NCBI RefSeq assembly: GCF_030816965.1
Contig: NZ_JAUSYQ010000002.1
Span: 8,298,001 to 8,362,000 of the forward strand
DNA: 64,000 bases
Origin: Streptomyces canus
Lineage (GTDB): Bacteria > Actinomycetota > Actinomycetes > Streptomycetales > Streptomycetaceae
Direction: 5' to 3'
Positions within the stretch are counted from its first letter, which is position 1. Every line of letters starts with the position of its first letter. The position numbers were made by a program, and so were the translations under genes. Of the stretch, positions 43,034-55,058 are shown piece by piece. The notes under the pieces are model-generated. The model worked only from the letters and a program-made list of their open reading frames with translations, searched no databases and had not been told where the DNA came from.

Positions 43034-43117
43034 GCCGCACTGGTCAGTTCCGGGATGACGGCGCATCCCGGCGCACCCGCACCCACCCGTACGACCGGCC
43101 CCTTTCTGGAGGCATCC

Positions 43118-45625
43118 GTGCACGGGAAAGACCGCACCACCACAACCGGCAGAATCGAGACCCACAGACGACGCGCCCCCTGGCGCAGAGCGGCGGCCCT
43201 GCTCACCGGCTTCCTGCTGGCCGGCGCCTCCCTCACCCTCGCCGCTCCCCAGGCAGGCGCAGCCGTCGCCGAGCCGGGAGCCGCTCAGGCCGCCGCCGAG
43301 GACTTCCAGCAGGTCACCCTCGCCAAGGGCGAGCCGGAGGTCGGGGAGCCCATGTCGCTCGCCGTCCTCCCGGACCGCTCGGTCCTGCACACCTCCCGCG
43401 ACGGCGAACTCCGCATCACCGACGCGGCCGGCACCACCCGGCTCGCCGGAAAGCTCGACGTCTACTCCCACGACGAGGAAGGCCTCCAAGGCGTCGGCGT
43501 GGACCCGCAGTTCACCACCAACCGCTTCATCTACCTCTACTACGCACCCCCGTTGAACACCCCGGCGGGTGACGCCCCCGAGACCGGCACCGCGGCCGAC
43601 TTCGCACCCTTCGACGGCGTCAACCGGCTCTCCCGGTTCGTCCTGAAGACCGACGGCACCCTCGACGCCGCCAGCGAGACGAAGATCATCGACATCCCCG
43701 CCAGCCGCGGCATCTGCTGCCACGTCGGCGGCGACATCGACTTCGACGCGGCCGGCAACCTCTACCTGTCGACGGGCGACGACTCCAATCCCTTCCAGTC
43801 GGACGGGTTCACGCCCATCGACGAACGCGCCAACCGCAACCCGGCCTTCGACGCCCAGCGCACCGCCGGCAACACCAACGACCTGCGCGGCAAGATCCTG
43901 CGCATCAAGGTCAACGCCGACGGCTCGTACGCCATCCCCGACGGCAACCTCTTCGCGCCCGGCACGGACAGGACCCGGCCCGAGATCTACGCCATGGGCT
44001 TCCGCAACCCGTTCCGCTTCAGCGTCGACAAGCAGACGGGGATCGTGTACGTCGGCGACTACGGCCCCGACGCGGGCGCCGCCGACCCGGCCCGAGGCCC
44101 CGCCGGCCAGGTCGAGTTCGCGCGCGTGACCGGCCCCGGCAACTTCGGCTGGCCGTACTGCACGGGCGACAACGACGCCTATGTGGACTACGACTTCGCG
44201 ACCGGCACCTCGGGCGCCGCCTTCGACTGCTCCGCGCCGAAGAACAACTCCCCGCACAACACCGGCCTCACCGACCTTCCCCCGGCGCAGGCCGCCTGGA
44301 TCCCCTACGACAACGGATCGGTACCCGAGTTCGGCACCGGCTCCGAGTCCCCGATGGGCGGCCCGGTCTACCACTACGACCCCGCGCTCGACTCACCCGT
44401 GAAGTTCCCCGAGGCCTACGACGGCGACTTCTTCGCCGGGGAGTTCGGCCGCCGCTGGATCAAGCGGATCACCAGCGACGACAACGGCACCGTCCAGTCG
44501 ATCAACGACATCCCGTGGACCGGCACCCAGGTGATGGACATGGCCTTCGGTCCCGACGGCGCACTGTACGTCCTCGACTACGGAGTCTCCTGGTTCGGCG
44601 GCGACGAGAACTCCGCCCTGTACCGCATCGAGAACGCCACCGACGGCCACTCCCCGGTCGCACAGGCCGCGGCCGACCGTACGTCAGGACAGGCACCCCT
44701 GCGAGTCCGGTTCTCCTCCGAGGGCACCAGCGACCAGGACGGCGACGCCCTCACCTACAGCTGGGACTTCGGCGACGGCGCCACGTCCACGGCGGCGAAC
44801 CCGACCCACACGTACAAGAAGAACGGCACCTACACGGCGACCCTGACCGCGAAGGACGCGAGCGGCCGCACCGGCAGCGCCAGCGTGCAGATCGTCGTCG
44901 GGAACACCGCGCCCAAGGTGACGCTCGAACTCCCGCAGGACGGCCGGCTGTTCAGCTTCGGTGACGCGATCCCGTTCAAGGTGCGGGTGAGTGACCCCGA
45001 GGACGGCCGGTCCATCGACTGCACCAAGGTCAAGGTCACCTTCGTCCTCGGCCACGACAGCCACGGCCACCCCGTGACCTCCGCCAACGGCTGCACCGGC
45101 ACCATCCAGACCAGCGCCGACGGCGGTCACGACGAGGACGCCAACATCTTCGGTGTGATGGACGCCGAGTACACCGACAACGGTGGCGGCGGCCAGGCCC
45201 CGCTGACCACCCACGACCAGAGCGTCCTGCAGCCCAGGCACCGCCAGGCCGAGCACTTCGGCACCGGCTCCGGCGTCTCGGTCATCGCCAAGGACACGGC
45301 ACACGGCGGCAACACGGTCGGCGACATCAACAACGGCGACTGGATCGCCTTCACACCGTACGTCCTGAGCAACGCCAAGTCGCTCACCGCACGCGTCTCC
45401 TCGGGCGGCACCGGAGGCACCCTCGAGATCCGCGCGGGGTCCGCGACCGGCACCCTGCTCGGCACGGCGGCCGTACCGGTGACCGGCGGCTGGGAGACCT
45501 TCCAGGACGTCACCGCCAACCTGTCCCGCGCGCCCAGGGGCACCACCACGCTCTACCTGGTCTTCAAGGGGAGCGGCACCGGCGCCCTGTTCGACGTGGA
45601 CGACTTCACCTTCACGACCGGCTGA
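43118..45625 (+). CDS. secreted PQQ-dependent sugar dehydrogenase-like protein with PKD and CBM6-like domains
   Basis: An 835-residue secreted protein. GGAGG lies 6 bases before the GTG at 43118; an arginine-rich signal peptide (about 1-49) follows. The six-bladed propeller (about 65-510) contains DEEGLQGVGVDPQFTTNRF and FRNPFRFSVDKQTG, typical of soluble PQQ-glucose-dehydrogenase relatives. A PKD domain (about 525-610, YSWDFGDGATS) and further beta domain precede a C-terminal CBM6-like module (about 708-835, RQAEHF and GDWIAF). No PQQ biosynthesis genes are visible, so the cofactor would have to be scavenged or made elsewhere. It may oxidise sugar ends of polymers. Confidence 0.86.
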   Translation: MHGKDRTTTTGRIETHRRRAPWRRAAALLTGFLLAGASLTLAAPQAGAAVAEPGAAQAAAEDFQQVTLAKGEPEVGEPMSLAVLPDRSVLHTSRDGELRITDAAGTTRLAGKLDVYSHDEEGLQGVGVDPQFTTNRFIYLYYAPPLNTPAGDAPETGTAADFAPFDGVNRLSRFVLKTDGTLDAASETKIIDIPASRGICCHVGGDIDFDAAGNLYLSTGDDSNPFQSDGFTPIDERANRNPAFDAQRTAGNTNDLRGKILRIKVNADGSYAIPDGNLFAPGTDRTRPEIYAMGFRNPFRFSVDKQTGIVYVGDYGPDAGAADPARGPAGQVEFARVTGPGNFGWPYCTGDNDAYVDYDFATGTSGAAFDCSAPKNNSPHNTGLTDLPPAQAAWIPYDNGSVPEFGTGSESPMGGPVYHYDPALDSPVKFPEAYDGDFFAGEFGRRWIKRITSDDNGTVQSINDIPWTGTQVMDMAFGPDGALYVLDYGVSWFGGDENSALYRIENATDGHSPVAQAAADRTSGQAPLRVRFSSEGTSDQDGDALTYSWDFGDGATSTAANPTHTYKKNGTYTATLTAKDASGRTGSASVQIVVGNTAPKVTLELPQDGRLFSFGDAIPFKVRVSDPEDGRSIDCTKVKVTFVLGHDSHGHPVTSANGCTGTIQTSADGGHDEDANIFGVMDAEYTDNGGGGQAPLTTHDQSVLQPRHRQAEHFGTGSGVSVIAKDTAHGGNTVGDINNGDWIAFTPYVLSNAKSLTARVSSGGTGGTLEIRAGSATGTLLGTAAVPVTGGWETFQDVTANLSRAPRGTTTLYLVFKGSGTGALFDVDDFTFTTG

Positions 45626-45639
45626 AAGGAGGGGCTCGT

Positions 45640-46983
45640 ATGAACACAACCGGACGATGGACGACGGCCGTTGTGGGAGCCGCCCTGCTCCTCGGCTGCG
45701 TGTCAGAACCCGCCGCGTCGCACTCCCCGGACGCCGAACGGGTGCTGGTCTTCTCCAAGACGGCCGGCTTCCGGCACGACTCCATTCCCGACGGTGTCGC
45801 CGCGGTGAAGCAGCTCGGTGAGACCGGCGGCTTCACGGTCGACGCCACCGAGGACGCGAACGCGTTCACCTCGCGCAACCTGCGCCGGTACGACGCGGTC
45901 GTGTTCCTCTCCACCACCGGAGACGTCCTCGACCCCACCCAACAGCGGGCCTTCGAGGGCTACATCCGGCACGGCGGCGGATACGTCGGTATCCACGCGG
46001 CCGCCGACACCGAGTACGACTGGGCGTTCTACGGCGGCCTCGCCGGCGCCTACTTCCAGTCGCACCCGGCGATCCAGCCGGCCACGGTGGTGGCCGAGGA
46101 CCGGGCCCACCCGTCCATGTCGGGGCTGCCTCCGACGTGGAACCGGACCGACGAGTGGTACAACTACCGCTCCAATCCCCGTGACCGTGCCCACGTCCTC
46201 GCCTCGCTCGACGAGTCGTCGTACACCGGCGGCACCATGAACGGCGACCATCCGATCGCCTGGTGCCAGGACTACCAGGGCGGCCGTGCCTTCTACACCG
46301 GCCTCGGCCACACGAAGGAGTCGTACGCGGACCCGGCGTTCCGCGGCCATGTGCTGGGCGGCATTCGCTATGCGATCGGCGAGGCCCAGGCCGACTGCCG
46401 GCCGGAGAACGGCTACCGTCCGCTCTTCGACGGCACGGCCGAGTCACTGGACGCCTGGCAACAGGCGGGTCCGGGCTCCTTCACCCGGTCCGACGACGGC
46501 ACGCTCACCTCGTCCGGCGGTATGGGGATGCTCTGGTACGCCGGTCAGAGCTTCGGGGCCTACTCCCTGAAGCTCGACTGGAAGATGGCCGGCGCCTCCG
46601 GTGACGACAACTCGGGTGTGTTCGTGGGCTTCCCGCCCTCGGACGACCCCTGGTCCGCGGTGGACAACGGCTACGAGATCCAGATCGACGCCACCGACGT
46701 ACCCGAGAAGACCACGGGGTCCGTCTACGGCTTCCGCTCCGCCGACCTCGAGAAGCGTGACCGTGCGCTGAACCCGCCGGGGGAGTGGAACACGTACGAG
46801 ATCCGCGTGGAGGGCGAACGCCTCCGCGTCTGGCTCAACGGCGTGAAGATCAACGATTTCACCAACACCGATCCGGCCCGGAGCCTGCGTGACGGGCATG
46901 TCGGCATCCAGAACCACGGAGCCGACGACCAGGTGTCGTTCCGCGACATCCGGATCAAGGAACTGCTCGTCAAGGGCGATTGA
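45640..46983 (+). CDS. lipoprotein with ThuA-like domain fused to DUF1080 (3-keto-glycoside hydrolase-like)
   Basis: A 447-residue surface lipoprotein (lipobox LLLGC near residue 20). The first half (about 34-250) is a ThuA-like class-I amidotransferase fold, with FSKTAGFRHDSI and GGGYVGIHAAADTEYDW. The second half (about 262-445) is a DUF1080 concanavalin-like domain (RPLFDGTAESLDAW, NSGVFVGFP, YEIQIDATD), a family now linked to hydrolysis of 3-keto-disaccharides. It lies 14 bases after the PQQ-type dehydrogenase gene. Together they suggest extracellular sugar oxidation followed by glycoside-bond cleavage. The reaction is inference. Confidence 0.85.
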   Translation: MNTTGRWTTAVVGAALLLGCVSEPAASHSPDAERVLVFSKTAGFRHDSIPDGVAAVKQLGETGGFTVDATEDANAFTSRNLRRYDAVVFLSTTGDVLDPTQQRAFEGYIRHGGGYVGIHAAADTEYDWAFYGGLAGAYFQSHPAIQPATVVAEDRAHPSMSGLPPTWNRTDEWYNYRSNPRDRAHVLASLDESSYTGGTMNGDHPIAWCQDYQGGRAFYTGLGHTKESYADPAFRGHVLGGIRYAIGEAQADCRPENGYRPLFDGTAESLDAWQQAGPGSFTRSDDGTLTSSGGMGMLWYAGQSFGAYSLKLDWKMAGASGDDNSGVFVGFPPSDDPWSAVDNGYEIQIDATDVPEKTTGSVYGFRSADLEKRDRALNPPGEWNTYEIRVEGERLRVWLNGVKINDFTNTDPARSLRDGHVGIQNHGADDQVSFRDIRIKELLVKGD

Positions 46984-47092: not shown

Positions 47093-48403
47093 ATGTCCGC
47101 GTCCGATTCCACACCGCGCGTCGGCGTCTGGCTGATCGGGGCCCGCGGTTCCGTCGCCACGACGGTCGTCGCGGGCTGCGCCGCCATGACGGCGGGCCTG
47201 CACCCGCCGACGGGCCTGCTCACCGAGACACCACCCTTCACCGAAAGCGGTCTGCCGGCCTTGTCCTCTCTGGTCTTCGGCGGCCACGACACGCTGGACT
47301 GCCCCTTGCCCAAACGGGCGGAGGCCCTGGCGGCGGGCGGTGTCCTGCCCCACGGCCTGCCGACAGCGGTGAGCGCCGAACTCGCCGCCGCGGAACGGGA
47401 GATCAGGCCCGGCGGCCCACTTCCCGGCGACACGAGGTCCGACGACGACCTGATCGCAGCCTTCGCCGCGGACATACGGTCCTTCGTACGACGGTGTCGG
47501 CTCTCGCGCGCGGTGGTGGTGAACGTGGCCTCCACCGAGCCCGCACCCACCGGCGACGCCCTGCCTCCGAGCTCCCTGTACGCGGCGGCAGCCCTGCGCG
47601 CGGGCTGCGCGTATGTGAACTTCACCCCCTCGACCGGCCTGCACCATCCTTTGCTGAGGCAGCAGGCCGAGTCCTTGGGTCTTCCGTTCGCGGGTCGCGA
47701 CGGCAAGACCGGCCAGACCCTGCTCCGGTCCGTCCTGGGCCCGATGTTCACCCAGCGTGCCCTGACGGTCCGGGCCTGGTCCGGCACCAATCTCCTCGGC
47801 GGCGGCGACGGAGCCTCCCTCGCCGACCCGTCGGCCGCCGCGGCGAAGAACGCCGGTAAGGAGCGCGTCCTGGCCGACACCCTCGGCACCACCCCGGAGG
47901 GCGAGGTCCACATCGACGACGTCCCCGCCCTCGGCGACTGGAAGACCGCCTGGGACCACATCGCCTTCGACGGATTCCTCGGCACCCGCATGGTCCTCCA
48001 GACCACTTGGCAGGGCTGCGACTCCTCCCTGGCCGCACCTCTCGTACTCGACCTGGCGCGTCTGGCCGCCCGCGCGCAGGAGAGGGGCCTGTCCGGCCCA
48101 CTGAGCGAACTGGGCTTCTACTTCAAGGACCCGGTGGGGCAGGGGCCCTCGGCGCTGGGGGAGCAGTACGGGCGGCTGGTGGGGTTCGCGGAGCGGCTGC
48201 GGGAAGAGCGCTCAGGGGGCGGGCAGCGGGGTGGTGGCTTTGCTGACGGTCCGGTCGCGGAGGGAGCGGACGGTGCGGACGTCGGGAGTGGCGGGGGCAG
48301 CGCGGGCGACTCCGGCGGTGGCGGCGATGGCGGCGTCTCCAGTTCGGTCGACAGTGGCGGCCTTGCCGGCGAGCCGGCCGATCGTTCGGGGGAGCAGTGG
48401 TGA
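47093..48403 (+). CDS. inositol-3-phosphate synthase homologue heading an Ebo-type cluster
   Basis: A 436-residue homologue of myo-inositol-1-phosphate synthase. The NAD loop is GARGSVATTVVAG (about 17-29); GRDGKTGQTLLR and GTNLLGGGDGASL match the MIPS catalytic and NAD segments; WDHIAFDGFLGTRM and SSLAAPLVLDLARLA match its C-terminal part. AAGGAGG precedes the ATG at 47093 by 6 bases. The last 65 residues are a Gly/Ser/Asp-rich tail with no family counterpart. S. coelicolor, as I recall, has the same gene next to SCO3242. It stands where other Ebo clusters have a dehydroquinate-synthase-like EboD. Product uncertain. Confidence 0.85.
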   Translation: MSASDSTPRVGVWLIGARGSVATTVVAGCAAMTAGLHPPTGLLTETPPFTESGLPALSSLVFGGHDTLDCPLPKRAEALAAGGVLPHGLPTAVSAELAAAEREIRPGGPLPGDTRSDDDLIAAFAADIRSFVRRCRLSRAVVVNVASTEPAPTGDALPPSSLYAAAALRAGCAYVNFTPSTGLHHPLLRQQAESLGLPFAGRDGKTGQTLLRSVLGPMFTQRALTVRAWSGTNLLGGGDGASLADPSAAAAKNAGKERVLADTLGTTPEGEVHIDDVPALGDWKTAWDHIAFDGFLGTRMVLQTTWQGCDSSLAAPLVLDLARLAARAQERGLSGPLSELGFYFKDPVGQGPSALGEQYGRLVGFAERLREERSGGGQRGGGFADGPVAEGADGADVGSGGGSAGDSGGGGDGGVSSSVDSGGLAGEPADRSGEQW

Positions 48404-49797
48404 GGACGAGCAGAGCCGTGGCACCGGAGCGCGTGTCCAAGGGCACGGGCGAGACGACGGCGACCCCCACCACGCCCTCGCTCAAGGAGCCTTCACCGCT
48501 CACCGCACCACCGAGCCGTACGCACACCAGCCGCCCCGACCGCGCCCGCGCCTGGGCCGAACTCCTGCGCCTGCCCGCCCTGTTCACCGTCCCCGGCGAT
48601 GCCCTGGCCGGAGCGGCGGCAGTCTCCGCACGCCCCAGTGCCCGGACTCTCCTCGCGATCGCCTCCTCCGTCTGTCTCTACGAGGCCGGCATGGCCCTCA
48701 ACGACTGGGCCGACCGCGACGTGGACGCTGTGGAACGCCCTCACCGCCCCCTCCCTTCCGGCCGAGTCCGCCCCGCGGCAGCCCTCGGCGCGGCCTGCGC
48801 CCTCACCGGCGCGGGCCTCTCGCTGGCGGCCTGCGCGGGCCGCCCCGCCCTCACGGTCGCGGTCCCCCTCACGGCCACGGTCTGGGCGTACGACCTCGCC
48901 CTGAAGAACACCCCGGCAGGACCGGTCGCCATGGCGACGGCACGAGGGCTGGACCTGCTGCTCGGTGCGGCGGCGACAGCGGGGGCCGGCGTTGTGGGCC
49001 GGAGAGGTGGGGCAAGCCCGTTGGCCCCCAGGGCCGGCGTGGACGGCGTGAGCCGGAAGGTCGGAGCGTGCCGAGCGTGGGCTACGGCCGTCGCCGACGA
49101 GCCTCGGGCGGCCTTGAGGGCGGCAGCCGTTCCCGGCGCCGTGCACGGCATCCGGCGGGCCCTGACCTCCGCTGCTCACCTCGGCGCTGCTCACCCCGGC
49201 ACCCGTAGGACCTGGCAGTCGGCTGCTCTCCTCGGCATCCGGCAGGCCCTGCCCTCCGCCGCCCTGCTCGGCGCCCACACCCTCGCCGTCACCACCGTCT
49301 CCCGCCGCGAGGCCCAGGGCGGCTCGCCCCTGGCCCCCTTCGCAGCGCTCGCCGTGACTGCCGCACTGACGCGGGCGGTGATCCGACAGCGTTCGCTCCC
49401 GACGGACCGGATCGACGGAAGCCGACGCGGTACCGGATCGCGCCGGCCGGCGGACCTGGCCGCCGCAGCCATGTCCCGCCTGTCACGCCCCCCGCGGCAG
49501 ACCGGCGCGCACATGCCCCCGCCCGGCCTCGACCCCCTCGGCGCACACGCGGCCCTGCGCCTCGCCCTCGCCGCCACCTACGCGGCCACTGCCGCCCGCC
49601 CCTACCTCCACGCCGCCCTCAACCCCTCACCCCCGCTCACCCAACGAGCCGTCACCGCCGGCATCAGAGCCACGATCCCCCTCCAGGCCGCCCTCACTGC
49701 CCGCTCGGGTGCGAAGGGCGCGACCGTCACGGCCCTGCTCACGACCGCCCTCGGCCCCCTGGCCGGACGCTTCGCGAGGAAGGTGAGTGTCACATGA
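48400..49797 (+). CDS. eboC: UbiA-family prenyltransferase, SCO3242/EboC type
   Basis: A 465-residue membrane prenyltransferase. The first prenyl-diphosphate motif NDWADRDVD is at 101-109, then RPHRPLPSGRV; several hydrophobic helices flank it. The second aspartate-rich motif is weak (ARGLDLLLG). Residues about 195-290 are an Ala/Arg-rich insertion with an internal duplication (GIRRALTSAAHLGA and GIRQALPSAALLGA), so the protein is about 100 residues longer than usual. The GTG at 48400 overlaps the upstream stop in a GTGA junction and is 5 bases after GGGGGAG. Donor and acceptor are unknown; a polar head group from the synthase homologue is plausible. Confidence 0.82.
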   Translation: MRTSRAVAPERVSKGTGETTATPTTPSLKEPSPLTAPPSRTHTSRPDRARAWAELLRLPALFTVPGDALAGAAAVSARPSARTLLAIASSVCLYEAGMALNDWADRDVDAVERPHRPLPSGRVRPAAALGAACALTGAGLSLAACAGRPALTVAVPLTATVWAYDLALKNTPAGPVAMATARGLDLLLGAAATAGAGVVGRRGGASPLAPRAGVDGVSRKVGACRAWATAVADEPRAALRAAAVPGAVHGIRRALTSAAHLGAAHPGTRRTWQSAALLGIRQALPSAALLGAHTLAVTTVSRREAQGGSPLAPFAALAVTAALTRAVIRQRSLPTDRIDGSRRGTGSRRPADLAAAAMSRLSRPPRQTGAHMPPPGLDPLGAHAALRLALAATYAATAARPYLHAALNPSPPLTQRAVTAGIRATIPLQAALTARSGAKGATVTALLTTALGPLAGRFARKVSVT

Positions 49798-50048
49798 CCG
49801 ACCCCCTCTCGCCGCGCCGACCCATTCCGGGCCCAGGCGACGACATGACCGGCCCCATTGCTCCGTCTCAGCCCCGGCCCCCTCGGGGCCGTGGTGCAGG
49901 CATGGCTGACCCCGTTGTCCGGCCCCGGCCCGTTGCCGGCTCCGGCGGCGACACGACTGCCCCAGTTGCTCCGCCCCGGCCCGCTCCTGGCGCCAACGGC
50001 ACCATGACCGCCCCCCTCGCTTCACCCCGCCCCGCCCCAGCCCCCGAC
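49794..50048 (+). repeat. five tandem degenerate codon repeats at the 5' end of the isomerase gene
   Basis: Five in-frame units (51, 57, 51, 51 and 45 bases) encode MTDPLSPRRPIPGPGDD-like peptides. They share the ATGACCG-C-CCCC opening in most copies. The region is entirely upstream of the catalytic barrel. Confidence 0.75.
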
Positions 50049-50912
50049 CCCACCCCGCTCCGCTTCGGCTACGGCACCAACGGTCTCGCCGACCTCCGTC
50101 TCGACGACGCCCTCACCCTGCTCGCCGACCTCGGCTACGACGGTGTCGGTCTGACTCTCGACCACATGCACCTGGACCCCCTCGCCCCCGACCTGGCCGC
50201 CCGCACCCGCCGCCTCGCCCACCGCCTGGACGCGCTCGGACTGACGGTCACCATCGAGACGGGCGCCCGCTATGTGCTCGACCCACGCCGCAAACACGGC
50301 CCCTCGCTGCTCGACCCCGACCCGGACGACCGCGCCCGCCGCGTCGACCTGCTGGTCCGGGCCGTCCAGGTCGCCGCCGACCTCGGCGCGCACGCCGTGC
50401 ACTGCTTCAGCGGCGTCACCCCGCCGGGCACGGACCCGGACACGGCGTGGAAACGGCTGGCCGGGACACTCACCCCCGTCCTCGACACCGCCGCCACCGC
50501 CGGCATCCCCCTCGCCATCGAGCCCGAACCGGGTCACCTCCTCGCCACCCTCGCCGACTTCCACCACCTCCGCACCACGCTCGGCGACCCGGCGGCCCTC
50601 GGACTGACCCTCGACATCGGCCACTGCCAGTGCCTCGAACCCCTGTCGCCCGCCGAGTGCGTGCACGCCGCGGGCCCCTGGCTGCGCCACGTCCAGATCG
50701 AGGACATGCGCCGGGGCGTCCACGAACACCTCCCCTTCGGTGACGGCGACATCGACTTCCCGCCCGTCCTGGCCGCCCTGGCCGACACCGGCTACCAGGG
50801 CCTGACGGTCGTCGAACTGCCTCGCCACTCCCACGCGGGCCCCCACTTCGCCGAACTCTCCCTCCCGTTCCTCCGTCAGGCAGTGGCGCTCTCACAAGGA
50901 AGCACCCCATGA
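49794..50912 (+). CDS. sugar phosphate isomerase/epimerase TIM barrel of the Ebo cluster, with repeated N-terminal extension
   Basis: A 372-residue protein. The catalytic barrel begins about residue 88 (LRFGYGTNGLADLRLDDAL) and shows metal sites IPLAIEPEPGH, LTLDIGHCQCL and RHVQIEDMRRG. The first 85 residues are five imperfect Pro-rich units of 15-19 residues, each beginning with M/T-T/A-x-P (MTDPLSP, MTGPIAP, MADPVVR, TTAPVAP, MTAPLAS). Four of the five begin with an ATG, so shorter forms may be made. The gene overlaps the prenyltransferase by 4 bases (ATGA) and EboA by 4 bases. Confidence 0.83.
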   Translation: MTDPLSPRRPIPGPGDDMTGPIAPSQPRPPRGRGAGMADPVVRPRPVAGSGGDTTAPVAPPRPAPGANGTMTAPLASPRPAPAPDPTPLRFGYGTNGLADLRLDDALTLLADLGYDGVGLTLDHMHLDPLAPDLAARTRRLAHRLDALGLTVTIETGARYVLDPRRKHGPSLLDPDPDDRARRVDLLVRAVQVAADLGAHAVHCFSGVTPPGTDPDTAWKRLAGTLTPVLDTAATAGIPLAIEPEPGHLLATLADFHHLRTTLGDPAALGLTLDIGHCQCLEPLSPAECVHAAGPWLRHVQIEDMRRGVHEHLPFGDGDIDFPPVLAALADTGYQGLTVVELPRHSHAGPHFAELSLPFLRQAVALSQGSTP

Positions 50913-51643
50913 CCCACTCCCATGCCCACCAGGCAACCTCCCCGGCGGACACCCAGGGCACCACCCTCGCCCGGACCCCGCTGCACGACCTCCACAGCCA
51001 CGTCTCCGAACGCCTCGGCGAAGCCGCCCGCACCTGGCTCGACCAGGCCCTCGACGAGGCCGCCGCCCACCCCGGCGCCCACGGCCCCATCTCCGTATGG
51101 GAGTTGCGCCTCGCCGAGGCCGGCCGCCGCTGCGGCCCCGAACACGCCGACGCCGTCCGCATCCTGATCCTGCACGCGGCCCGCGCCGACACCGACGCCC
51201 TGACCCGGGTCTACGCCCAGGGCACCGCCGCCGAACGCCGCGCCGTCCTGCACGCCCTGCCCCATCTGGTGTCCGGCCCCGAGGCCCTCCCGCTCGTCGA
51301 GGACGCCCTGCGCACCAACGACACCCGGCTCCTGGCCGCCGCCGTCGGCCCCTACGCCGCCCGTCATCTCGACACCCACCACTGGCGCCACGCCGTCCTG
51401 AAGTGCCTGTTCACCGGGGTACCCGTCGCCGAGGTGGCGGACCTGGACCGACGGGCCCACGCGGACGCCGAACTCGCCCGCATGCTCGGCGACTACGCCG
51501 CCGAACGCACCGCCGCGGGCCGTCCTGTGCCCGAGGACCTGCACCGCGTCCTGACCTTGACCGACCCCACGGCCACCCCACCCGCGCCGGCCGCCGACCA
51601 CGGCCCGAACGGCGCGGAAGGCATCCACGGCAAGGAGTCCTGA
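50909..51643 (+). CDS. eboA: EboA-domain protein
   Basis: A 244-residue soluble protein matching the EboA family by its motif-rich C-terminal half (LRTNDTRLLAAAVGPYAARHLD, then WRHAVLKCLFTGVPVAEV and ELARMLGDYAAERTAAGRPVP). The N-terminus is His/Thr-rich (MTHSHAHQATSPADT). EboA proteins have no known enzymatic activity. In cyanobacteria and some algal plastids they belong to the Ebo operon, which has been connected with transport of a secondary metabolite, scytonemin. Here it overlaps both neighbours (4 bases upstream, 1 base downstream). Confidence 0.88.
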   Translation: MTHSHAHQATSPADTQGTTLARTPLHDLHSHVSERLGEAARTWLDQALDEAAAHPGAHGPISVWELRLAEAGRRCGPEHADAVRILILHAARADTDALTRVYAQGTAAERRAVLHALPHLVSGPEALPLVEDALRTNDTRLLAAAVGPYAARHLDTHHWRHAVLKCLFTGVPVAEVADLDRRAHADAELARMLGDYAAERTAAGRPVPEDLHRVLTLTDPTATPPAPAADHGPNGAEGIHGKES

Positions 51644-52491
51644 TGCGCATCTTCGACCCCCACATCCACATGACGTCACGGACCACCGACGACTACCAGG
51701 CCATGCACACCGCCGGCGTCCGCGCCGTCGTCGAACCGTCCTTCTGGCTCGGCCAGCCCCGCACCTCTCCCGCCTCCTTCCTCGACTACTTCGACTCCCT
51801 GCTGGGCTGGGAGCCCTTCCGCGCCGCCCAGTACGGCATCGCCCACCACTGCACCCTCGCCCTGAACCCCAAGGAGGCCAACGACCCGCGCTGCGTCCCC
51901 GTCCTCGACGAGCTGCCCCGGTATCTCGTCAAGGACCAGGTCGTCGCCGTCGGCGAGATCGGCTACGACTCGATGACCCCGGCCGAGGACACCGCCCTCG
52001 CCGCCCAGCTCCAGCTCGCCGCCGACCACGAGCTGCCCGCGCTGGTCCACACCCCGCACCGCGACAAGCTCGCCGGTCTGCGCCGCACCCTCGACGTCGT
52101 CCGCGAGTCCGCCCTGGCGCCGGACCGGGTCCTGGTCGACCACCTCAACGAGACCACCGTCAAGGAGGCCAAGGACAGCGGCTGCTGGCTCGGCTTCTCC
52201 GTCTATCCCGACACCAAGATGGACGAGGAGCGGATGGTCGCGATCCTGCGCTCCTACGGTCCCGAACAGGTCCTGGTGAACTCCGCCGCCGACTGGGGCC
52301 GCAGCGATCCCCTCAAGACCCGCAAGGTCGCGGACCTCATGCTCGCCGAGGGCTTCACCGAGGACGACGTCGACCGCGTCCTGTGGCGCAACCCCGTCGC
52401 CTTCTACGGACTCAGCGGCCGGCTCAACCTCGACATCGCGGCCACCGAGGCCACCCACGAGGGCAACTCCATCCTCCGCGGCGGGGCGTGA
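51643..52491 (+). CDS. TatD-family metal-dependent hydrolase, EboB type
   Basis: A 282-residue amidohydrolase-superfamily protein. Metal ligands are visible in MRIFDPHIHMTSR (HxH), GEIGYDSM (Glu), LPALVHTPHRDK, LVDHLNETT and NSAADWGRSDP (Asp). The barrel is that of TatD-like phosphodiesterases and deacylases. Its start codon shares one base with the EboA stop (TGATG). In Ebo clusters EboB is this hydrolase. Substrate unknown; a phosphoester or glycoside formed in the pathway is plausible. Confidence 0.88.
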   Translation: MRIFDPHIHMTSRTTDDYQAMHTAGVRAVVEPSFWLGQPRTSPASFLDYFDSLLGWEPFRAAQYGIAHHCTLALNPKEANDPRCVPVLDELPRYLVKDQVVAVGEIGYDSMTPAEDTALAAQLQLAADHELPALVHTPHRDKLAGLRRTLDVVRESALAPDRVLVDHLNETTVKEAKDSGCWLGFSVYPDTKMDEERMVAILRSYGPEQVLVNSAADWGRSDPLKTRKVADLMLAEGFTEDDVDRVLWRNPVAFYGLSGRLNLDIAATEATHEGNSILRGGA

Positions 52492-52494
52492 GCC

Positions 52495-53664
52495 ATGCGC
52501 TTCCGCCACCCCGACGGCACCACCGTCCACCTCGCCTACTGCACCAACGTCCACCCAGCCGAGACCCTCGACGGCGTCCTGGCCCAGCTCCGCGACCACT
52601 GCGAACCCGTCCGCCGCCGCCTCGGCCGCGACCGCCTCGGCATCGGCCTGTGGCTCGCCCGCGACGCCGCCCACGCCCTGGTCAGCGACCCCTCCGCGCT
52701 GCGCGACCTGCGCACCGAACTCGACCGCCGCGGCCTCGAAGTCGTCACCCTCAACGGCTTCCCCTACGAGGGCTTCGGCGCCGAAGAGGTCAAGTACCGC
52801 GTCTACAAGCCGGACTGGGCCGACCCCGAACGCCTCGACCACACCACCGCCCTGGCCCGCGTCCTCACCGGACTCCTGCCCGACGACGTCACCGAGGGCA
52901 GCATCTCCACACTGCCGCTCGCCTGGCGCACCGCCTACGACGAGGGGAGCGCCGACAAGGCCCGCACCGCCCTGCTCACCCTCGCCGAACGCCTCGACGC
53001 CCTCCAGGAGCTGACCGGCCGCTCCATCCGCGTCGGCCTCGAACCCGAGCCCGGCTGCGTCGTCGAGACCACCGGTGACGCCATCGCACCGCTGACCGCG
53101 ATCGCCCACGAACGCATCGGCATCTGCGTCGACACCTGCCATCTCGCCACCTCCTTCGAAAACCCGCAGACCGCCCTGGACGCGCTCACCGCGGCCCGTG
53201 TCCCCGTCGTCAAGTCCCAGCTCTCAGCCGCCCTGCACGCCGAACACCCCCATCTCCCCGAGGTCCGCGAGGCACTCGCCGCCTTCGACGAACCCCGCTT
53301 CCTGCACCAGACCCGCACCGGCACCTCCGCCGGCCTCCGCGGCACCGACGACCTCGGCGAGGCCCTCGCAGGCGGCGCCCTGCCCGACGGGGCACCCTGG
53401 CGCGCCCACTTCCACGTCCCGCTGCACGCGGCCCCCGCCGCACCGCTCACCTCCACGCTCCCCGTACTCAAGTCCGCCCTGACCCGGCTCGTCGGCGGCC
53501 CGCACCCGCTCACCCGCCACCTGGAGGTCGAGACCTACACCTGGCAGGCCCTCCCACCCGAACTGCGCCCCCGCGGCCGCACCCAGCTGGCCGACGGCAT
53601 CGCCGCCGAACTCACCCTCGCGCGCGACCTGCTGACGGACCTCGGCCTGAAGGAGCTGCCATGA
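52495..53664 (+). CDS. eboE: EboE, TIM-barrel metabolite traffic protein
   Basis: A 389-residue TIM-barrel protein of the EboE family. The beginning (HLAYCTNVHPAETLDGVLAQL) and FPYEGFGAEEVKYRVYKPDW are hallmark EboE segments; VGLEPEPGCVVET, GICVDTCHLATSFE and FHVPLHAAP supply sugar-isomerase-like metal sites. EboE was described in cyanobacterial and eustigmatophyte Ebo operons. It is separated from EboB by 3 bases and overlaps EboF by 4. It may isomerise or bind the pathway intermediate. Confidence 0.9.
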   Translation: MRFRHPDGTTVHLAYCTNVHPAETLDGVLAQLRDHCEPVRRRLGRDRLGIGLWLARDAAHALVSDPSALRDLRTELDRRGLEVVTLNGFPYEGFGAEEVKYRVYKPDWADPERLDHTTALARVLTGLLPDDVTEGSISTLPLAWRTAYDEGSADKARTALLTLAERLDALQELTGRSIRVGLEPEPGCVVETTGDAIAPLTAIAHERIGICVDTCHLATSFENPQTALDALTAARVPVVKSQLSAALHAEHPHLPEVREALAAFDEPRFLHQTRTGTSAGLRGTDDLGEALAGGALPDGAPWRAHFHVPLHAAPAAPLTSTLPVLKSALTRLVGGPHPLTRHLEVETYTWQALPPELRPRGRTQLADGIAAELTLARDLLTDLGLKELP

Positions 53665-55058
53665 ACCACCAGCCCCAAGAGGCGGCACCGACCCCTCTCC
53701 TCGTCCTCGACGTCGTAGGCCTCACCCCCCGTCTCCTCCGCCACATGCCCCACCTCAAGGCCCTCGCCCGGTCCGGATCCCATGCCCCGCTCGGCACCGT
53801 GCTGCCCGCCGTCACCTGCGCCGCCCAGTCCACCTTCCTCACCGGCACCCACCCCTCGGAACACGGCATCGTCGGCAACGGCTGGTACTTCCGCGAACTC
53901 GGCGACGTACTCCTGTGGCGACAGCACAACGGTCTGGTCGCCGGCGACAAACTCTGGGACGCCGCCCGCCGCGCCCACCCCGGCTACACGGTCGCCAACA
54001 TCTGCTGGTGGTACGCCATGGGCGCCGACACCGACTTCACCGTCACCCCCCGCCCCGTCTACTACGCCGACGGCCGCAAGGAACCCGACTGCTACACCCG
54101 GCCCCCGGACCTGCACGACGAACTCACCGAGAAACTCGGCACCTTCCCCCTCTTCCACTTCTGGGGACCCGGCGCGGACCTGGTCTCCAGCCAGTGGATC
54201 ATCGACGCGACCCGTCACCTCATGGGCACCCGCCATCCCGACCTGACGCTCTGCTACCTCCCCCACCTCGACTACGACCTCCAGCGCTTCGGCCCCGACG
54301 ACCCGCGCTCCCTGAAAGCCGCCGCCGACCTGGACAGGGCGCTCGCCCCGCTCCTGGACGACGCCCGCGCGGAAGGCCGTACCGTCGTCGCGCTGTCCGA
54401 GTACGGCATCACCCGCGCGGACCGCCCCGTCGACATCAACCGCGCCCTGCGCCGCGCCGGACTTCTCGAGGTGCACACACAGGACGGCATGGAGTACCTC
54501 GACCCGATGGCCTCCCGTGCCTTCGCGGTCGCCGACCACCAGATCGCCCATGTCTATGTGCGCCGCCCCGAGGACCTGGACGCCACCCGAGCCGCCCTCG
54601 ACGGCCTGCCCGGCATCGAGCAACTCCTCGACGACGAGGGCAAGAAGGCCCACCACCTCGACCATCCGCGCTCCGGCGAACTCGTCGCCGTGGCGGAGCC
54701 GGACGCGTGGTTCACGTACTACTACTGGCTCGACGACGACCGCGCGCCCGACTTCGCGCAGCTGGTCGAGATCCACCGCAAACCCGGCTACGACCCGGTC
54801 GAACTCTTCATGGACCCGCTCGACCCCTACGTCAAGGTCAAAGCGGCCACCGCGCTGGCCCGAAAGAAGCTCGGCCTGCGCTACCGCATGGCGGTCGTGC
54901 CCCTCGACCCGTCACCTATTCGCGGCAGCCACGGCCGCCTCCCCGAGAGCGACGACGACGGTCCGCTCCTCATCTGCTCCACCCCCCGCACCCTCGGCGA
55001 CCGCATCGCGGCCACCGACGTGAAGTCACTCCTGCTCCACCTCGCCGGTCTCGGCTGA
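53661..55058 (+). CDS. EboF-type alkaline-phosphatase-superfamily phosphodiesterase
   Basis: A 465-residue nucleotide pyrophosphatase-like enzyme. The first metal aspartate is in LLVLDVVGLTP, the nucleophile threonine in PAVTCAAQSTFLTGTHPSEHG, and the second Asp in YLPHLDYDLQRFG. The third metal site, normally a DHG motif, reads LSEYGITRA (coding bases about 54396-54422): Asp is replaced by Glu and His by Tyr. The C-terminal SHGRLP histidine may compensate. It overlaps EboE by 4 bases and is the last gene of the tight Ebo cluster, with 101 bases to the next gene. Substrate unknown. Confidence 0.88.
   Translation: MNHQPQEAAPTPLLVLDVVGLTPRLLRHMPHLKALARSGSHAPLGTVLPAVTCAAQSTFLTGTHPSEHGIVGNGWYFRELGDVLLWRQHNGLVAGDKLWDAARRAHPGYTVANICWWYAMGADTDFTVTPRPVYYADGRKEPDCYTRPPDLHDELTEKLGTFPLFHFWGPGADLVSSQWIIDATRHLMGTRHPDLTLCYLPHLDYDLQRFGPDDPRSLKAAADLDRALAPLLDDARAEGRTVVALSEYGITRADRPVDINRALRRAGLLEVHTQDGMEYLDPMASRAFAVADHQIAHVYVRRPEDLDATRAALDGLPGIEQLLDDEGKKAHHLDHPRSGELVAVAEPDAWFTYYYWLDDDRAPDFAQLVEIHRKPGYDPVELFMDPLDPYVKVKAATALARKKLGLRYRMAVVPLDPSPIRGSHGRLPESDDDGPLLICSTPRTLGDRIAATDVKSLLLHLAGLG

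What the first reader, a model, noticed from the sequence alone, without database searches (positions are those of the whole stretch)
47093..55058. Ebo-type cluster with an inositol-phosphate-synthase homologue in the usual EboD position
Seven consecutive same-strand genes, nearly all overlapping by 1-4 bases or 3 apart: synthase homologue, UbiA-like EboC, TIM isomerase, EboA, TatD-like EboB, EboE, EboF-type phosphodiesterase. Ebo operons were described in cyanobacteria (scytonemin export) and algal plastids/bacteria, where EboD resembles 3-dehydroquinate synthase. Here a MIPS homologue that also makes a carbocycle from a sugar phosphate takes that place. Inference: the cluster builds a prenylated or lipid-linked cyclitol. 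No product is known to me.
Basis: partly seen in the sequence, partly recalled or inferred. Interest (0 to 1): 0.85.

Follow-up and report, generated by a model that had tools for sequence, protein, structure and literature searches.

The report
Ebo cluster with swapped ring-making module
A soil bacterium carries a form of a widespread but unexplained gene cluster in which the usual ring-forming enzyme is replaced by an inositol-phosphate-synthase relative plus a sugar-isomerase-like enzyme and a matching prenyl-attaching enzyme, which hints at ring-bearing membrane lipids built with interchangeable ring parts.

Summary
The seven-gene run at 47093-55058 is real. It is not peculiar to this genome: 25 of 27 fetched actinobacterial EboA loci and 64 of 64 well-flanked named loci have the MIPS homologue, and EboD was found in 0 of those 27 and 0 of all 80 named loci. 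Haloarchaea and Gemmatirosa have MIPS-type sets too. The EboB tree rejects one MIPS-type clade (p 1.4e-6). The EboC tree splits by cyclase type on one 100/100 branch if the long-branched Aureibacter row is left out. So MIPS+TIM+EboC looks like an exchangeable module, and EboC probably acts on the cyclase's ring. Best reading: a prenylated C6-cyclitol lipid; all chemistry is inferred. New variant of a known kind.

The parts
47093..48403 (+). MIPS homologue (436 aa; conserved part about residues 1-366, then a low-complexity tail); stands in place of EboD
   Evidence: PF07994 113 bits, PF01658 101 bits, TIGR03450 only 35.8 of 638; nearest solved structure A. fulgidus MIPS 1u1i, 193 bits; catalytic lysines kept
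48397..49797 (+). EboC, UbiA-type prenyltransferase of the SCO3242 family (466 aa; internal low-complexity insert around 49030-49270)
   Evidence: NF045897 360 bits (cut-off 260); NF035940 EboC 110 of 250; repeats in the insert
49794..50912 (+). Extra xylose-isomerase-like TIM barrel; travels with MIPS; conserved part from about 50040
   Evidence: PF01261 152 bits; in 25 of 27 actinobacterial loci and 0 of 10 EboD-type loci; model pLDDT 85, nearest folds sugar 3-epimerases
50909..51643 (+). EboA-domain protein
   Evidence: NF035938 168 bits, cut-off 50
51643..52491 (+). EboB, TatD-like metal hydrolase
   Evidence: PF01026; alignment A1
52495..53664 (+). EboE, TIM-barrel protein
   Evidence: NF035939 426 bits, cut-off 250
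53661..55058 (+). EboF, type I phosphodiesterase / nucleotide pyrophosphatase family
   Evidence: PF01663 242 bits
43055..45625 (+). Neighbour, possible partner: glucose/sorbosone-dehydrogenase domain with PKD and CBM6
   Evidence: PF07995, PF18911, PF03422; a GSDH gene lies within 10 kb of EboB in 7 of 11 genomes
45640..46983 (+). Neighbour, possible partner: ThuA plus 3-keto-disaccharide hydrolase domain
   Evidence: PF06283, PF06439
55160..56200 (+). Neighbour: further TIM-barrel protein with an N-terminal stretch that looks like a Tat signal (my reading); 101 bases after EboF
   Evidence: PF01261 62.5 bits; matched in 70 of 80 named loci

Best explanation
This is the MIPS form of the Ebo pathway. 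The MIPS homologue closes a six-carbon ring, most likely from glucose 6-phosphate. The neighbouring TIM-barrel enzyme epimerises or isomerises that cyclitol (or inosose) phosphate. EboC attaches a prenyl chain to the resulting ring. EboB, EboE and EboF trim it (hydrolysis, a second isomerase-type step, removal of a phosphate or phosphodiester) and EboA is an accessory protein. The product would be a membrane-bound prenylated cyclitol needed for something outside the cytoplasm, as the other form is needed for export of the scytonemin monomer in Nostoc. SHOWN here: the genes and their order, the exchange of EboD against MIPS plus TIM, retention of the MIPS catalytic residues, and that EboC lineage follows cyclase type. 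INFERRED: every reaction, the substrate, the prenyl donor, the order of steps, the product and its role.
For: MIPS and TIM are each in 25 of 27 actinobacterial EboA loci, both together in 24, EboD in 0 of 27; in 10 EboD-type loci MIPS 0, TIM 0. Invariant K252, K256, K284, K345, N233 and D310 in 15 aligned MIPS-family proteins, matching the residues altered in three mutant A. fulgidus entries where those were printed. EboB tree: one MIPS clade rejected, p 1.4e-6. EboC tree: 23 rows of MIPS-type clusters (2 of them without MIPS in the stretch held) against 8 EboD rows on one 100/100 branch, the actinobacterial EboD-type row L191 on the EboD side. Gemmatirosa: EboB with actinobacteria rejected, p 2.6e-45; EboC with Deinococcus rejected, p 0.0019. 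TIM and EboA in one frame in 2 of 101 loci. TIM model nearest to sugar 3-epimerases. Nostoc ebo deletions accumulate scytonemin monomer (PMC6282210, passages); flavobacterial EboC homologues farnesylate quinoline acids in vitro (PMC9235831, passages).
Against: No reaction or product has been measured. The tested EboC homologues took aromatic acceptors, not cyclitols. The EboC split needs the long-branched Aureibacter row left out: with it, that EboD row falls beside the haloarchaeal rows. The EboF tree does not reject one MIPS clade (p 0.164). Only one EboG-plus-MIPS genome (Gemmatirosa) was available. MIPS is missing in L044, L056 and in the Haladaptatus stretch, TIM in L052 and L056; L043 has only a partial MIPS match.
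Confidence: 0.45

Rival explanations
1. Same product by two routes: MIPS plus TIM makes the very carbocycle (or an equivalent intermediate) that EboD makes in one step, so the final product is the same in both forms.
For: EboA, EboB, EboE and EboF are shared by both forms; the exchange occurs in both the EboA and the EboG background; EboB and EboF do not sort by cyclase type.
Against: EboC sorts by cyclase type, which suggests that its acceptor differs. EboD-family cyclases are thought to use a C7 sugar phosphate (proposal in PMC5133447), MIPS a C6 one (family knowledge).
Confidence: 0.2
2. The MIPS homologue makes ordinary myo-inositol 3-phosphate and the pathway uses plain inositol phosphate; the TIM barrel acts on another intermediate.
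For: Catalytic residues are those of true MIPS; nearest solved relative is a true MIPS.
Against: The genome already has a MIPS of the mycothiol equivalog family, so plain inositol phosphate should be at hand; ebo MIPS carry W-x-G-x-N where 6 of 6 non-ebo matches and the A. fulgidus row have W-x-S-x-N; the TIM accompanies MIPS so regularly.
Confidence: 0.2
3. Ebo proteins are not a biosynthetic pathway but act together directly in moving metabolites across the membrane, as proposed for Nostoc; the cyclase supplies a side cofactor at most.
For: All five single ebo deletions in Nostoc gave the same phenotype with the monomer kept in the cytoplasm (PMC6282210, passages).
Against: The soluble members belong to enzyme families; a ring-forming enzyme is present in every fully held MIPS-type named locus (64 of 64) and in 10 of 10 EboD-type loci (chosen as such); the MIPS active site is intact. 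A pathway making one cofactor would also give one shared phenotype.
Confidence: 0.1
4. Housekeeping: the cluster's MIPS is simply a second supply of inositol for phospholipids or mycothiol.
For: It is annotated 'inositol-3-phosphate synthase' in public records.
Against: Dedicated TIGR03450 MIPS at 5.096 Mb (733.7 bits) against 35.8 bits here; same linkage to ebo genes in Actinobacteria, Gemmatirosa and haloarchaea.
Confidence: 0.05

Closest known systems
ebo operon eboA-F of eustigmatophyte plastids, Bacteroidetes, Cyanobacteria and others (PMC5133447, PMC6282210)
   Same: EboA domain, EboB, UbiA-type EboC, EboE and EboF in one tight cluster
   Different: there the sugar phosphate cyclase is EboD (DHQ-synthase superfamily) and only one TIM barrel (EboE) is present; here MIPS plus an extra TIM, and another EboC lineage
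myo-inositol-1-phosphate synthase of Archaeoglobus fulgidus (PDB 1u1i)
   Same: fold family and catalytic residues; both make or should make a carbocycle from a sugar phosphate with NAD
   Different: ebo copies carry W-x-G-x-N instead of W-x-S-x-N, are clustered with a TIM barrel and EboC; activity untested
five-membered-cyclitol-phosphate synthase (PDB 6k96; recalled as Ari2 of aristeromycin synthesis)
   Same: a MIPS homologue recruited to specialised metabolism
   Different: much more distant from the window enzyme (57 bits against 193 for A. fulgidus MIPS)
BE-40644 pathway of Actinoplanes (as described in PMC5133447)
   Same: a cyclitol is made and then farnesylated by a UbiA-superfamily enzyme
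   Different: uses a DHQS-type cyclase on a C7 sugar; Ebo proteins are not described for it in the passage seen
EDB cluster of Pseudomonas fluorescens NZI7 (as described in PMC6282210)
   Same: contains an ebo cluster; disruption removes a nematode-repelling trait
   Different: EboD form; product unknown

Membership tests
ebo operon (EboA-EboF) | EboA domain | tested here: met
   NF035938 168 bits, cut-off 50; the narrower EboA_family model NF035937 is not reached (67 of 320)
ebo operon (EboA-EboF) | EboE equivalog | tested here: met
   NF035939 426 bits, cut-off 250
ebo operon (EboA-EboF) | UbiA-type EboC | tested here: inconclusive
   UbiA domain yes; EboC equivalog NF035940 110 of 250 not reached, sister model NF045897 reached (360 of 260); first Asp motif kept
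ebo operon (EboA-EboF) | TatD-like EboB and phosphodiesterase EboF | tested here: met
   PF01026 and PF01663; 50-57% identity to Azospirillum, Mycetohabitans, Salipiger and Ketogulonicigenium counterparts by tblastn
ebo operon (EboA-EboF) | EboD, DHQ-synthase-superfamily cyclase | tested here: not met
   only aroB in the genome; 0 of 27 and 0 of 80 related loci
MIPS family | NAD-binding and MIPS domains with catalytic Lys, Asn and Asp residues | tested here: met
   PF07994 and PF01658 over cut-off; K252, K256, K284, K345, N233, D310 invariant in 15 rows; roles recalled
MIPS family | mycothiol-type INO1 equivalog (TIGR03450) | tested here: not met
   35.8 of 638 bits
MIPS family | conversion of glucose 6-phosphate to inositol 3-phosphate | not testable with these tools
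   needs purified protein
xylose-isomerase-like sugar epimerases/isomerases (extra TIM) | PF01261 domain and TIM-barrel fold | tested here: met
xylose-isomerase-like sugar epimerases/isomerases (extra TIM) | a particular activity (3-epimerase, inosose isomerase, dehydratase) | tested here: inconclusive
   no NCBIfam cut-off reached; many folds within a few Z units

The most novel reading that the evidence does not exclude
Ebo pathways are a modular family of prenylated-ring membrane cofactors: a tailoring core (EboA or EboG, B, E, F) plus an exchangeable ring module, either EboD with its EboC or MIPS+TIM with its EboC, spread over bacteria, plastids and archaea. In the MIPS form the ring lipid serves oxidation of sugars outside the cytoplasm, in keeping with the neighbouring GSDH, ThuA and 3-keto-disaccharide-hydrolase genes. 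It would be an unrecognised class of ring-bearing isoprenoid carriers beside quinones and polyprenyl phosphates.
Probability: 0.15. Interest if true: 0.88.

Novelty: new variant of a known kind. Interest (0 to 1): 0.62.

Why it matters
The papers on ebo operons that I saw give no product, although the operons occur in many phyla and in algal plastids. Two unrelated ring-forming enzymes alternating in one cluster, with the prenyltransferase changing in step, is comparative evidence that EboC acts on the cyclase's ring. It also offers a tractable host (Streptomyces), names the genes to delete, and predicts a ring whose precursor can be fed in labelled form, so an open question becomes directly testable.

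Tried and rejected
Rejected: (a) MIPS as the housekeeping enzyme (second MIPS present). (b) A hidden EboD: one PF01761 match in the genome, aroB; tblastn with AroB and with Azospirillum EboD found none in the 27 and the 80 related loci. (c) A one-gene replacement: the extra TIM goes with MIPS. (d) One MIPS-type clade by descent of the whole cluster (EboB; not significant for EboF).

The fold comparison of the TIM model lists many sugar epimerases and xylose isomerases close together; it supports the fold, not a substrate. Art22, ranks 2 and 3 there, could not be followed up (listing only; no paper there held the word Art22 among the 8 listed). The MIPS tree is weakly resolved at its base and has a very long housekeeping branch; the TIM tree lacks the haloarchaeal TIM rows because my script skipped them. 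I draw nothing from either. L192 and L193 hold only distant TatD matches at 29% identity and were not used.

Rows dropped, trimmed or limited: EboC trees leave out L034 and L056, and in the second tree and also Aureibacter L155 (long branch); the EboC tree does not hold L191. Frames were trimmed for L041 EboF, L191 EboC, and MIPS and TIM rows. In the EboC counts two rows of the MIPS-type group (L044, L156) have no MIPS in the stretch held. The EboB and EboF trees use a chosen subset of the 27 loci and only L145 and L146 of the 80. Of the 80 named loci 16 failed my flank criterion; 15 of 80 show no MIPS match, 14 of them with under 2.6 kb held upstream; L111 has 10 kb upstream and no MIPS, EboC or TIM match, with 989 bases downstream. 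L048 and L088 appear to be the same contig, so the two sets overlap. EboD-type loci come from plasmid records (9) and one genome (1). The GSDH test was thought of after seeing the neighbours.
Full report
WHAT IS THERE. The window (70% G+C) lies in a 10.66-Mb genome of two contigs; the nearest named loci are Streptomyces. The seven frames at 47093-55058 are open and tightly packed. Family searches identify a MIPS homologue, a UbiA-type enzyme of NCBI's 'SCO3242 family', a xylose-isomerase-like TIM barrel, an EboA-domain protein, a TatD-like EboB, EboE (equivalog cut-off passed) and a type I phosphodiesterase, EboF.

A separate EboD: the genome has one match to the DHQ-synthase domain, directly after a shikimate-kinase frame, so it is aroB of an aroKB pair. 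A housekeeping role: the genome has a second MIPS at 5.096 Mb that passes the mycothiol-type equivalog cut-off (733.7 bits, cut-off 638), whereas the cluster's enzyme scores 35.8. Neither refuter holds.

HOW GENERAL IN ACTINOBACTERIA. EboA domains occur in 26 of 396 sampled genomes of the phylum, at 28 places. I fetched up to 20 kb around the 27 places other than the window. MIPS is matched in 25 of 27, the TIM in 25 of 27, both in 24, the other five genes in 27 of 27, EboD in 0 of 27. One of the 25 MIPS matches, L043, is partial. The exceptions tell something: L044 lacks MIPS and L052 lacks TIM, and each is the second copy in a genome whose other copy (L039, L035) has all seven genes; L056 lacks both and has a split EboE match and a short EboC frame. 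Of the 64 with at least 6.5 kb upstream and 3.5 kb downstream of EboB, 64 have MIPS and 57 show all seven genes. NCBI's annotation already shows the pieces side by side, and SCO3242 and SCO3243 of S. coelicolor were listed among CDA-cluster genes as a putative transferase and a myo-inositol phosphate synthase (PMC3610822, passages). The EboD form also exists in the phylum: L191 (EboD, EboG, B, E, C, F), and the text of PMC9235831 describes an ebo set with EboD for a comparison that includes Saccharomonospora (passages).

BEYOND ACTINOBACTERIA. tblastn against plasmid records gave 41 records for MIPS and 51 for EboB. MIPS-type sets appear in Halobaculum, Halocatena and Natronococcus (MIPS, UbiA, two or three TIM barrels, TatD, phosphodiesterase; EboA not matched, EboE only weak 23% matches to the TIM genes) and in Gemmatirosa (MIPS, TIM, EboC, EboB, EboE, EboF and EboG; unannotated record, genes located by tblastn). 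Haladaptatus has the haloarchaeal set but no MIPS in the stretch held. The haloarchaeal UbiA scores about equally to the EboC and SCO3242 models, below both cut-offs. EboD-type clusters: Azospirillum, Mycetohabitans, Gloeothece, Salipiger, Ketogulonicigenium, Roseivivax, Aureibacter, two Deinococcus, and L191. In these 10 loci MIPS is matched in 0 and the window-type TIM in 0. So EboD alternates with MIPS plus TIM, in both the EboA and the EboG background.

EXCHANGE HISTORY. EboB tree (34 rows; 22 MIPS, 9 EboD, 3 neither): at least two changes between EboD and MIPS, one MIPS-type clade rejected (p_AU 1.4e-6); with L191 added the quick tree needs three. Haloarchaeal EboB held together with actinobacterial EboB is rejected more weakly (p 0.018). 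EboF needs two changes but does not reject one clade (p 0.164). EboC behaves otherwise: with all rows one MIPS clade is not rejected (p 0.32), and without the long-branched Aureibacter row 23 rows of MIPS-type clusters (21 with MIPS) and 8 EboD rows part on a single 100/100 branch, with L191 on the EboD side. In Gemmatirosa the conflict is significant both ways: EboB with the actinobacteria rejected (p 2.6e-45), EboC with Deinococcus rejected (p 0.0019). I read this as exchange of a block {MIPS, TIM, EboC} against {EboD, its EboC}. In the window and in Gemmatirosa these three genes are neighbours. Against a perfect rule: with Aureibacter included that EboD row falls beside the haloarchaeal rows, and the EboG-plus-MIPS case rests on one genome.

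PROPOSED MECHANISM AND ITS LIMITS. Ring closure by MIPS, adjustment by TIM, prenylation by EboC, tailoring by EboB, EboE and EboF. The order and all chemistry are inference. An isoprenoid-cyclitol compound was proposed for the EboD form in PMC5133447. What is added here is that the ring-making part is exchangeable and that EboC changes with it.

A POSSIBLE ROLE. In 11 genomes (4 to 10.7 Mb, 1 to 11 GSDH genes each by my count) a GSDH gene lies within 10 kb of EboB in 7 of 11, or 4 of 8 genera, where 0.4 to 4.6% per genome is expected (p 1.2e-5 by genus; the family was chosen after seeing the window, so this is a lead). The gene lies 5' of the cluster in the window and 3' of EboF in L045, L046, L049 and L051. 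ThuA genes are near in several. A PQQ-dependent dehydrogenase is annotated beside the clusters of Natronococcus and Salipiger. Together with the Nostoc export phenotype (PMC6282210, passages) this points to work outside the cytoplasm.

NOVELTY. Searches of the CC-licensed PMC library for EboA+EboC+inositol, inositol-3-phosphate synthase+UbiA+TatD, EboE+Streptomyces, Ebo/cyclitol terms since 2017, and MIPS/UbiA/cyclitol/prenyltransferase combinations listed no paper reporting the MIPS form (listings, of which the ebo papers were looked into by passages). The word inositol does not occur in the main text of PMC5133447 or PMC6282210. Subscription papers and supplements were not searched, so it may be in print elsewhere. 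Verdict: new variant of a known kind, interest 0.62.

Noticed in passing
L063 8947-15573, L064 9001-18313, L068, L160: A different cluster in Hymenobacter, Roseomonas and two Methylobacterium pairs a MIPS homologue with the same TIM subfamily (44-47% identity to the window TIM); in the two annotated records it also has YcaO, Gfo/Idh/MocA and PIG-L-deacetylase genes (in Roseomonas a GT4 glycosyltransferase too). It hints at a second pathway using a MIPS-TIM pair.
   Followed up: partly
window 43055-46983: A gene with a glucose/sorbosone-dehydrogenase domain and a ThuA/3-keto-disaccharide-hydrolase gene lie just upstream; GSDH genes lie near EboB in 7 of 11 actinobacterial genomes.
   Followed up: partly
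L191 7523-13197: A genome of the actinobacterial phylum (G301) carries the EboD/EboG form, so both forms exist in the phylum.
   Followed up: yes
L044, L052: In two genomes with two ebo copies the second copy lacks one module gene: MIPS in L044, TIM in L052, while the other copy is complete.
   Followed up: no
window 48980-49290 and 48210-48400: Low-complexity, partly repeated insert inside EboC and a Gly/Ser-rich tail on MIPS; lengths vary among close relatives.
   Followed up: partly
L059-L060 and other plasmid records: Complete MIPS-type ebo clusters sit on Streptomyces plasmids beside biosynthetic genes (a type II polyketide set in L059, an adenylation-domain gene in L060).
   Followed up: no
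L156: Haladaptatus has the haloarchaeal ebo-like set but no MIPS in the 16.8 kb held.
   Followed up: no
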